From assembly GCA_937928595.1 (NCBI GenBank), contig CALGJV010000002.1:1-64000 (forward strand): 64,000 bases of DNA, written 5' to 3'. This stretch comes from an uncultured Phycisphaerae bacterium. GTDB taxonomy: Bacteria > Planctomycetota > Phycisphaerae > UBA1845 > Fen-1342. Shown here piece after piece: positions 56,598 to 59,861 of this stretch (position 1 is its first letter; every line of letters begins with the position of its first letter). The notes beneath the pieces were generated by a model. That model had not been told where the DNA came from. It ran no database searches and was given only the letters and a program-made list of their open reading frames with translations. The position numbers were made by a program, and so were the translations under genes.

Positions 56598-59510
56598 TCA
56601 GCAGGCGGCCCAGCCGCAGCCGTGGCACTTCCGGCAGCCTTCCTGCAACGAGAGCGTTCCGCCGCACTCCGGGCACTTGACGCTGTAGTGCGCCGCCGAA
56701 TCGTGGCGGTGCCGCACGGACGCCAGCACACCGCTCAGATCCAGCATAGGGGCGTCGGCGGCGACGGTCGTCGGAACCGGCGGCAGCGCCGACTCCGTGA
56801 CGCGGAGCTCCGCGACACTGGGGGCCTCCGCGAGTTCTTCATCGAGCACGGCGACCGCGACGTCATCGTCCGCCGCGCTGTGCCCGTTGCCGTTGCCGTT
56901 GCCGTTCGACCCTGCCGAGGAGTGCGCGGCGCGTGGGGACTGGCTGCGCGTCAAGAGCGCAGAACGGGACGCGGCCAGAGGCCGTTCGACCAACCGCTCG
57001 GCCGTGGGAGTCGCGACGCGGGCGGTCGCGGCAGCGCCCGTGACAGCCGGCGGCGACACGGGCCGGTCGAGCGGCGTGTTGTCCGGCGTGTGGGGCGCAG
57101 GCCGCGGGTTGTCGATCTCCGCGGGTTCGATCTCGCCGAGAAGCAGGGCGCGGAGGCCGAAGCGCTCCTTGGCCCGGGCGTACTTCTTGAGCGCGCACGC
57201 CAGACCGTCGCCGAGGGACATGATGCGTCCGCTGCGGGTCGGGATCTGGAGCGACGTGCCGATGCCTTCGAGCTGCTTGATCACGAGGCGCAGGCTGCCG
57301 CCGGACCGCAGCCAGAGCGATGTGAGGCGACAGATGGCCTCCAAGTCGCTGTTGGCGACGTCGCCGCCCTTGCCGAGCTGCGCGAAGACCTCGAGCTCAC
57401 GGTCGTTGCGAGGGTCGACCGTGATCTTCACGTGCATGTTGCCGAACGGCGTCATCTGGCGGATGCGCAGGCCGCTGACGATTTCGGGCAGGTCCATGGG
57501 CTCAATGTGCGGCGGGCCGGGAGGAACCGGCGGATCGGCCGGTCGGGCGGCCTCGGCGGCCGCCTTCTTCGCAGCTTCGACCTGCTTGAGTGCCATCGGC
57601 TGGCCGCTGCGGCAGTTGTTGCGATAGACGGTCACGCCCTTGCACCGGAGATCGAACGCGAGGCGGTAGATCGTCTCGACGTCCTCGCGGGTGGCTTCCT
57701 CGGGGAAGTTGATCGTCTTGCTGATGGAGGCGTCGCAGTGCTCCTGGAAGGCGGCCTGCATGCGCATGTGCCACTCGGGCGAGATGTCGTGCGCGCAGAC
57801 GAAGACGAGGCGCACGTCCTCGGGGATGCCGTCGATGTGCGCCAGCGTGCCTTCGCGCGCGATGCGTTCGATCAGGTCGTCGCTGTAGAAACCCCGCTGC
57901 CGGGCGACGGTCCGGAATGTCTCGTTGACCTCCACAAGCGGCTTGTCGCCGCCCCGCTGGCCCTTGAGCACGTTGCGGATGAACGCCAGCGAGAACATCG
58001 GTTCGATGCCGCCGGAGCAGTTGGCGATGATGCTGATGGTGCCGGTGGGCGCCACGGTGGTGACCGCGGCGTTCCGCATCATGCGATTGTGCCGCGTCTG
58101 CCACAGGCTGCCTTTCCAGTTGGCGAAGCAACCGCGCTCGCGGGCGAGCTGCTCGCTGGCGTTGTGGGCCTCATCGTTCACGAACTTCATGAAGCGGCGG
58201 CCCCACTCAACGCCCGCCGCGCTGTTGTACGGCACGCCCAGCTTGAACAGGGCGTCCGCGAAGCCCATGATGCCCAGGCCGATCTTGCGGTTGTTCCGGC
58301 AGATCTGCTCGATTTCCGGCAGCGGGTAGTTGTTGGCGTCGATGACGTTGTCCAGGAACCGCGTCGCCAGGTGCACATCGACCCGCAGGGCTTCCCAGTC
58401 GACGGCCGCCTCCGGCGTGCATGCTCCGCGGACGTACAACCCGAGGTTCACGCTGCCCAGGTTGCAGGCCTCGTAGGGCAGCAGGGGCTGCTCTCCGCAC
58501 GGATTCGTCGCCTCGATACGGCCGACGTGCGGCGTGGGGTTGTGCTCGTTGATGCGGTCGATGAACACCACGCCGGGCTCGCCCGTCTGCCAGGCGTGAT
58601 CGACGATGAGGTTCCAGATGTCGCGCTTGGTGTAGACCCGCCCTTGCAGCTCGGCGGGGAGGGGCCCGGTCATCCGGGGCGAGCGGTAGTAACGCTCCCG
58701 GGCTGTCGGCGCGACCGGCTCGACGCAGTCGACCGGAATCAGGTCGCGCACGTCGTACTTCCAGATGTCGAGGTCGCGCGGGAGGGCGAAGGCCTGGCCG
58801 TTCCGCGGATTGCGGACGATGTGCGGCGAGTCGGGGTCGGCCCGGTGTTCCTCCATCCACACGTCCGTGACCTTCACCGAGATGTTGTAGTTCGTGAACT
58901 GATTGAGATCCTGCTTGGCGTACAGGAACTTCAGGATGTCGGGGTGATGGATGTACATCATCCCCATGTTCGCGCCACGGCGGAACGCGCCCTGCTGGAT
59001 CGCGTTGGTCGCCTCGCTGAAGGCCTTCCAGAAGCTGATCGGTCCGCTGGTCGTCCCGCCGCTCGACTTGATGAAGTCGCCGGTCGGGCGAAGTTCGTCG
59101 AACGCGAAGCCCGTGCCCCCGCCCGCCTTCTGAATCAGGGCCGTGTGCTTGATGCTGTTGAAGATGTCCACGATCGAGTCGCGGACCGGCAACACGAAGC
59201 AGGCCGAGAGCATGCCCATCTCGCGCCCGGCATTCATGAGCGTCGGCGAGTTGGGCATGAACGCGCCGCGCGCCATCAGATCGTAGAAAGCGGTCTCCCA
59301 CCGGTGGCGGTCCAGCTCGCTGGCGCCGTAGAGCAACTCCGCGTCGGCAATGGTGCGGGCCACTCGACGAAAGAGATCCCCCGGGAGCTCAATGCACGCC
59401 CCGGATTCGTTCTTCTTCAGGTACCGGGCCTCGAGTACCTTGCGGGCGTTCTCCGTGAGTTGGGGCTCGTCCATGAGCCGCGCGGCAGTGGTGGAGGGCA
59501 TCGTTGACAT
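56598..59510 (-). CDS. nrdJ: B12-dependent (class II) ribonucleotide reductase, 970 aa
   Basis: This enzyme makes deoxyribonucleotides using adenosylcobalamin, so it works with or without oxygen. Visible marks are MPNSPTLMNAGREMGMLSAC with an active-site Cys, QKAGGGTGFAFDELRPTGD, RRGANMGMMYIHHPD, NPCGEQPLLPYEACNLGSVN (radical Cys region) and APTGTISIIANCSGGIEP. The C-terminus (about 700-970) has a long low-complexity linker and a final zinc ribbon, CPECGG and CRKCHGCGWAAC. GGAG lies eight bases ahead of ATG 59510. The 5' region shows a good promoter with two NrdR-like boxes (see separate entries), suggesting repression when dATP is high. Confidence 0.95.
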   Translation of the reverse strand: MSTMPSTTAARLMDEPQLTENARKVLEARYLKKNESGACIELPGDLFRRVARTIADAELLYGASELDRHRWETAFYDLMARGAFMPNSPTLMNAGREMGMLSACFVLPVRDSIVDIFNSIKHTALIQKAGGGTGFAFDELRPTGDFIKSSGGTTSGPISFWKAFSEATNAIQQGAFRRGANMGMMYIHHPDILKFLYAKQDLNQFTNYNISVKVTDVWMEEHRADPDSPHIVRNPRNGQAFALPRDLDIWKYDVRDLIPVDCVEPVAPTARERYYRSPRMTGPLPAELQGRVYTKRDIWNLIVDHAWQTGEPGVVFIDRINEHNPTPHVGRIEATNPCGEQPLLPYEACNLGSVNLGLYVRGACTPEAAVDWEALRVDVHLATRFLDNVIDANNYPLPEIEQICRNNRKIGLGIMGFADALFKLGVPYNSAAGVEWGRRFMKFVNDEAHNASEQLARERGCFANWKGSLWQTRHNRMMRNAAVTTVAPTGTISIIANCSGGIEPMFSLAFIRNVLKGQRGGDKPLVEVNETFRTVARQRGFYSDDLIERIAREGTLAHIDGIPEDVRLVFVCAHDISPEWHMRMQAAFQEHCDASISKTINFPEEATREDVETIYRLAFDLRCKGVTVYRNNCRSGQPMALKQVEAAKKAAAEAARPADPPVPPGPPHIEPMDLPEIVSGLRIRQMTPFGNMHVKITVDPRNDRELEVFAQLGKGGDVANSDLEAICRLTSLWLRSGGSLRLVIKQLEGIGTSLQIPTRSGRIMSLGDGLACALKKYARAKERFGLRALLLGEIEPAEIDNPRPAPHTPDNTPLDRPVSPPAVTGAAATARVATPTAERLVERPLAASRSALLTRSQSPRAAHSSAGSNGNGNGNGHSAADDDVAVAVLDEELAEAPSVAELRVTESALPPVPTTVAADAPMLDLSGVLASVRHRHDSAAHYSVKCPECGGTLSLQEGCRKCHGCGWAAC

Positions 59511-59604
59511 CCGCGTACTCCGTTGTGGGGATGTACCGTTTCGACCGAGTTACTACATGCCTCTGCCGGCGTCCGGCCGGCTGCCCCAGGATTGGCGGGG
59601 CTGC

Positions 59605-59620
59605 CCACCAGATTTAGGGG
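59605..59620 (-). promoter_or_regulatory. NrdR-like box 2
   Basis: The core at 59608-59617 reads CTAAATCTGG on the minus strand and matches the NrdR consensus core CWATATATWG at 7 of 10 positions. It lies just downstream of the predicted nrdJ start site, 31 bases from box 1. Confidence 0.5.
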
Positions 59621-59629
59621 GCAACGTTC

Positions 59630-59658
59630 AATATAGCTCAAGATATTGGGGGCGTCAA
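59630..59658 (-). promoter_or_regulatory. sigma70-like promoter of nrdJ
   Basis: On the minus strand TTGACG (59653-59658) and TATATT (59630-59635) are 17 bases apart. The predicted start is near 59623, leaving a leader of about 113 bases to nrdJ. Confidence 0.75.
59636..59651 (-). promoter_or_regulatory. NrdR-like box 1
   Basis: The core at 59639-59648 reads CAATATCTTG on the minus strand, 9 of 10 matches to CWATATATWG. It sits inside the -35/-10 spacer of the nrdJ promoter. NrdR boxes typically come in pairs about 31 bases apart, as here. Confidence 0.6.
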
Positions 59659-59699
59659 AAATTATCTGCGGGGCCACGAGATTGTCCATAAGTGCGTGA

Positions 59700-59717
59700 A
59701 ATACAACAGGTTGTATT
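59700..59717. promoter_or_regulatory. perfect 18-bp palindromic operator candidate
   Basis: AATACAACAGGTTGTATT consists of perfect 8-base arms around a 2-base centre. It lies about 40 bases upstream of the nrdJ -35 and resembles a dimeric repressor or activator site. The regulator is unknown. Confidence 0.55.
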
Positions 59718-59861
59718 CATCACTCCCATGGGTACAAGCCGATGTAATCGCCTGGCGTCGAGCCGCCGGACTGGCGCCAGAGTACCAAACATCAAGCTAA
59801 CGAATTGTGAAGTCGGGAGCGGTTTCTGATTTCCGGAACCGCTGGTGGATCGGCTTGCCGA

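What the first reader, a model, noticed from the sequence alone, without database searches (positions are those of the whole stretch)
59605..59658. nrdJ promoter bracketed by two NrdR-like boxes at 31-base spacing
On the minus strand TTGACG-17-TATATT is a good promoter. Within its spacer lies CAATATCTTG (9/10 to the NrdR core CWATATATWG), and 31 bases downstream CTAAATCTGG (7/10). The two boxes also share the longer half-site GCCCCC(A/T)A(A/T)ATCT. Paired boxes about three helical turns apart are the hallmark of NrdR control, here placed over the promoter of a B12-type reductase.
Basis: partly seen in the sequence, partly recalled or inferred. Interest (0 to 1): 0.6.

Follow-up and report, generated by a model that had tools for sequence, protein, structure and literature searches.

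The report
NrdR operator pair over nrdJ promoter
In this planctomycete the promoter of its only ribonucleotide reductase gene is overlaid by a conserved pair of binding sites for the dATP-sensing repressor NrdR, as in most bacteria; the less usual parts are a third site 65 bases upstream and a free-standing double ATP-cone protein encoded in the nrdR operon.

Summary
nrdJ (56598-59510, minus strand) has a TTGACG-17-TATATT promoter with two NrdR-like boxes exactly 31 bp apart. A matrix trained only on other families scores the pair at 32.3 bits. The next unrelated pair in the 64 kb window scores 7.5, and none of 5000 shuffles reaches 32.3. In the 3.7 Mb genome it is the only match at E<=10 to a pair model (which includes it as a training row).

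The genome encodes a complete NrdR, and NrdJ is its only detected RNR catalytic subunit. The same pair lies upstream of nrdJ in nearly all relatives of the order, and of nrdR in its family.

- A third box at 59700-59717, 65 bp upstream. In relatives it is half of a second, distal pair at -97/-65; the outer box has decayed here.
- Box 1 fills the -35/-10 spacer and box 2 covers the predicted start site: the pair overlaps the promoter rather than bracketing it.
- Box 2 also forms the 5' arm of a probable leader stem-loop.
- A stand-alone double ATP-cone protein overlaps nrdR by 4 bp; NrdJ has no ATP-cone.

No binding or expression was measured.

The parts
59635..59652 (-). NrdR box 1 (CCCCCAATATCTTGAGCT), filling the -35/-10 spacer
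   Evidence: 17.7 bits with a matrix trained on other families; a box above 9 bits at this promoter position in 22 of 22 aligned family genomes
59604..59621 (-). NrdR box 2 (CCCCCTAAATCTGGTGGG), 31 bp downstream, over the predicted transcription start
   Evidence: 14.6 bits; a box at +31/+32 exceeds 7 bits in 14 of 22 family genomes, the rest weaker
59700..59717 (-). Third, distal NrdR box (AATACAACCTGTTGTATT), 65 bp upstream of box 1
   Evidence: 14.4 bits; 13 of 22 family genomes have a site >7 bits at exactly -65/-66, against 0.13 such sites per genome expected anywhere in 280 bp
59731..59748 (-). Decayed fourth box position (-96): ATTACATCGGCTTGTACC
   Evidence: Only -1.8 bits here; intact at -96/-97 in 7 of 22 relatives, making a distal 31/32-bp pair where the -65 box is also present
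59630..59658 (-). nrdJ promoter TTGACG-17-TATATT
   Evidence: TTTGACG and the TATA-type -10 are the strongest conserved columns outside the boxes in 22 family genomes
59582..59625 (-). Probable 5'-terminal leader stem-loop (TGCCCC...GGGGCA) whose 5' arm overlaps box 2
   Evidence: Mean folding z -1.57 over 22 leaders, p 2e-7, against -0.54 for the next 48 nt; arm-class permutation p 5e-5; a less sensitive exchange test was not significant
59682..59691 (-). Conserved TTATGnnnAAA-type element between the distal box and the -35, role unknown
   Evidence: Column profile anchored on the -65 box
56598..59510 (-). nrdJ, class II (adenosylcobalamin) ribonucleotide reductase, no ATP-cone
   Evidence: NCBIfam PRK08665 / NrdJ_Z above cut-off; Pfam Ribonuc_red_lgN, lgC and TSCPD only

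Best explanation
This is the NrdR operator of nrdJ. When dATP is plentiful, NrdR loaded with ATP and dATP forms a tetramer that grips box 1 (between -35 and -10) and box 2 (over the start site), three helical turns apart, and blocks RNA polymerase. When dATP falls, NrdR is ATP-loaded, releases the DNA and nrdJ is transcribed. The third box, at -65, is the remnant of a second pair that relatives keep at -97/-65, and probably only strengthens repression. nrdR carries a similar pair in its own promoter, so the circuit probably regulates itself. Shown here: the sequence, its improbability, its conservation, the presence of NrdR and the single RNR. Inferred: binding, nucleotide dependence and direction of control, from NrdRs studied in other bacteria.
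For: Letters and spacing exact. 32.3 bits with a matrix trained on other families, 0 of 5000 shuffles. Only pair-model match at E<=10 in the genome, E 8.9e-9. Conserved pair at nrdJ in nearly all relatives; 58 of 63 loci at >=64% NrdJ identity exceed 15 bits and 0 of 12 more distant ones do. nrdR present in own genome and in 59 of 61 genomes searched, with DNA-contact residues D15 and R17 and the RRRR motif intact. nrdR promoters of relatives carry the same 31/32-bp pair. Box 1 lies inside the conserved promoter. In studied bacteria NrdR needs two boxes, usually three turns apart, and binds as a dATP/ATP tetramer (PMC12051234, PMC9110341).
Against: No binding or expression data. Box 2 is weak in several family members. 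The own nrdR promoter pair is poor (2.4 bits). The genome-wide model includes this site as one of 42 training rows. The transcription start is inferred from the -10 only.
Confidence: 0.93

Rival explanations
1. A different palindrome-binding regulator, not NrdR, uses the pair and the distal box.
For: The distal box in this genome (CAACCTGTTG) departs from the AT-rich NrdR centre, and an unexplained conserved element TTATGnnnAAA lies beside it.
Against: The motif matches the NrdR core and three-turn spacing, recurs at nrdR itself, and nrdR is nearly universal in the genomes that have it. Distal sites in several relatives show the AT-rich NrdR centre.
Confidence: 0.04
2. The conserved sequence is mainly an RNA leader element: box 2 is conserved because it forms the 5' arm of an mRNA stem-loop.
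For: Leader folding z -1.57 and arm covariation p 5e-5.
Against: Box 1 and the distal boxes lie upstream of the predicted start and cannot be explained by RNA; the 31/32-bp spacing is kept in other families with long leaders; no Rfam match.
Confidence: 0.02
3. Chance resemblance of an AT-rich promoter to NrdR boxes.
For: Box 2 alone is only 7/10 to the core consensus.
Against: 0 of 5000 shuffles; conservation across dozens of genera.
Confidence: 0.005

Closest known systems
Streptomyces coelicolor NrdR on the nrdRJ promoter
   Same: Class II nrdJ under a pair of NrdR boxes three helical turns apart; NrdR with zinc ribbon and ATP-cone (PMC9110341).
   Different: Here nrdR and nrdJ are unlinked, each with its own pair; there is a distal box at -65, and nrdR is followed by a free-standing double ATP-cone gene.
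Listeria monocytogenes nrdAB promoter (two NrdR box pairs)
   Same: A proximal pair over the polymerase site plus a distal pair, each with a 15/16-bp gap (PMC12051234).
   Different: Here the offset between pairs is almost fixed across a family (65/66 bp between inner boxes); in this genome the outermost box has decayed; the target is nrdJ.
Streptococcus pneumoniae nrdHEF (three NrdR boxes)
   Same: More than two boxes upstream of an RNR operon (PMC12051234).
   Different: Pneumococcal gaps between boxes are 24-26 bp; here the boxes are 31 and 65 bp apart, start to start.

Membership tests
NrdR operator (paired NrdR boxes) | Two boxes close to CWATATATWG, both outer C/G kept | tested here: met
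   9/10 and 7/10; outer C and G present in both; 17.7 and 14.6 bits
NrdR operator (paired NrdR boxes) | Spacing of about three helical turns (15-16 bp gap, 31-32 bp start to start) | tested here: met
   31 bp here; 31/32 in most relatives, 30 in a few
NrdR operator (paired NrdR boxes) | Upstream of a ribonucleotide reductase gene, overlapping its promoter | tested here: met
   nrdJ; box 1 inside TTGACG-17-TATATT
NrdR operator (paired NrdR boxes) | nrdR present in the genome | tested here: met
   G000:C27:57914-58351, E 1.2e-51
NrdR operator (paired NrdR boxes) | Conserved in relatives | tested here: met
NrdR operator (paired NrdR boxes) | NrdR binds with ATP plus dATP and represses transcription | not testable with these tools
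   needs purified protein and reporter assay
NrdR protein family | N-terminal zinc ribbon plus ATP-cone, DNA-contact residues D15 and R17, RRRR | tested here: met
   Pfam PF22811 and PF03477; residues
Class II RNR (NrdJ) | NrdJ-type catalytic subunit | tested here: met
   TIGR02504 667 bits, cut-off 400
Known leader RNA (Rfam, e.g. cobalamin riboswitch) | Covariance-model match in the nrdJ leader | tested here: not met
   no match to E 1 in the window stretch, none to E 0.1 in 20 relatives

The most novel reading that the evidence does not exclude
In this class of planctomycetes dNTP control is split: NrdJ has no ATP-cone, and a free-standing tandem ATP-cone protein, related to the N-terminal double cone of class III reductases (NrdD), is translationally coupled to NrdR. 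It would act in trans, either as a second nucleotide-sensing partner of NrdR on two-pair operators or as a detachable activity switch for NrdJ.
Probability: 0.3. Interest if true: 0.7.

Novelty: new member of a known kind. Interest (0 to 1): 0.4.

Why it matters
It extends experimentally known NrdR control to Phycisphaerales planctomycetes, where one B12-dependent reductase appears to supply all dNTPs, so this operator is probably a main point of dNTP control. The conserved 65-bp offset between two box pairs, and the nrdR-coupled double ATP-cone protein beside a cone-less NrdJ, give directly testable leads on how NrdR tetramers cooperate and whether an ATP-cone can act in trans.

Tried and rejected
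A B12 riboswitch or other known leader RNA was looked for and not found. A first exchange test of the leader stem was not significant; a later test by arm classes and Watson-Crick pairs was, so the stem-loop is called probable only. A DnaA-box reading of TTATGGACA was considered and dropped because relatives do not keep a DnaA box. A second promoter for the TTATG element was considered; no consistent -35 was found. A wider NrdR regulon in this genome: none besides nrdJ at E<=10 with the pair model.

Full report
What was checked. The letters and coordinates of the finding are right. On the minus strand TTGACG (59658-59653), a 17-bp spacer and TATATT (59635-59630) form a promoter that the scan also reports. 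CAATATCTTG (59648-59639) lies in the spacer and CTAAATCTGG (59617-59608) exactly 31 bp further on. The open reading frame behind it (56598-59510, minus) is a class II, B12-dependent ribonucleotide reductase, and its ATG at 59510 has an upstream GGAG.

Chance. A palindromic 18-bp matrix was trained only on nrdJ upstream regions from other families of the order, so without this genome or its family. It gives 17.7 and 14.6 bits for the two boxes, 32.3 for the pair. The best unrelated pair in the 64 kb window is 7.5 bits. In 5000 dinucleotide shuffles of the intergenic region the maximum is 19.3. A sequence-only model of the pair, searched over the 3.69 Mb genome, finds this site alone at E<=10 (E 8.9e-9); the site was one of its 42 training rows, so one search is the independent test.

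The regulator. The genome encodes NrdR (G000:C27:57914-58351, 175.8 bits) with a zinc ribbon and ATP-cone. It keeps D15, R17 and the RRRR motif, which contact or support DNA binding in studied NrdRs (PMC9110341). 59 of 61 genomes searched have nrdR. NrdJ is the only PF02867 protein, and no class III NrdD was found.

Conservation. Pairs at 30-32 bp occur upstream of nrdJ in nearly all relatives read. Among loci of named records, mostly Phycisphaerales/Phycisphaerae metagenome-assembled genomes, 58 of 63 with at least 64% NrdJ identity have a pair over 15 bits, and 0 of 12 more distant ones do. These loci overlap with the genomes the matrix was trained on. Aligned on box 1, family members show TTTGACG, box 1, then a TATA-type -10: box 1 fills the promoter spacer. 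So the boxes overlie the promoter and the predicted start; they do not bracket it.

Autoregulation. nrdR promoters of family relatives carry a 31/32-bp pair at about -120 to -160. The own nrdR promoter has CACGCAACGGGTAGTTGT and GTAACAACCCGTGGTATG 32 bp apart in TTGACA-17-TACATT. It scores only 2.4 bits but is the best pair in that 10-kb stretch.

The distal box. A third site, AATACAACCTGTTGTATT (59700-59717, 14.4 bits), lies 65 bp upstream of box 1. In 22 family genomes distal sites over 7 bits average 1.14 per genome against 0.13 expected; 13 are at -65/-66 and 7 at -96/-97. Several relatives (G002, G010, G021) have both, so they carry two pairs. Here the -96 position scores -1.8 and has decayed. 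Two pairs are known at Listeria nrdAB, where the distal pair binds 5-10 times more weakly and its role is unclear; three boxes are known at pneumococcal nrdHEF (PMC12051234).

The leader. The first 48 nt of the predicted mRNA fold better than shuffles in the family (mean z -1.57, p 2e-7; next 48 nt -0.54). Box 2 forms the 5' arm. Three classes of left arm (CCCCC, CCGCC, CCCCACT) tend to have matching right arms, permutation p 5e-5. A cruder test was not significant. Relatedness of the genomes is not modelled, so this is probable, not shown.

An unexpected neighbour of nrdR. The gene after nrdR overlaps it by 4 bp (GTGA) and encodes about 186 residues with one recognised ATP-cone and a conserved C-terminal half. 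A relative follows nrdR in 24 of the other 29 nrdR loci read, and lies next to nrdR in two other families of the class. In other planctomycetes the best matches are N-terminal double cones of long proteins; two read in full resemble NrdD (the NrdD label rests on the sequences read by eye). NrdJ has no ATP-cone. A trans-acting sensor is an attractive guess, untested.

Verdict. The operator is a new, well-supported member of a known kind. The fixed two-pair layout and the nrdR-coupled double ATP-cone protein are the parts worth following.

Noticed in passing
G000:C27:58417-58977 (L003 about 2004-2564): Free-standing double ATP-cone protein gene overlapping nrdR by 4 bp (GTGA), conserved after nrdR in much of the class; resembles the N-terminal double cone of class III reductases.
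   Followed up: partly
window 59682-59691 (minus strand): Conserved TTATGnnnAAA-type element between the distal NrdR box and the -35 in the family; no known role.
   Followed up: partly
L174 (G013:C9:137958-138002): One relative carries a second copy of the whole nrdJ promoter with its boxes, beside an apparent integrase gene, 18 kb from nrdJ and on the other strand.
   Followed up: partly
L098, L099, L100, upstream of nrdJ: A sub-group lacks a good NrdR pair at nrdJ (about 11 bits), although one genome with the same site (G037) does have nrdR.
   Followed up: no
L207, L210, L211: Long proteins with N-terminal double ATP-cones and what look like degenerate NrdD-like barrels in other planctomycetes; possible non-enzymatic paralogs.
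   Followed up: no
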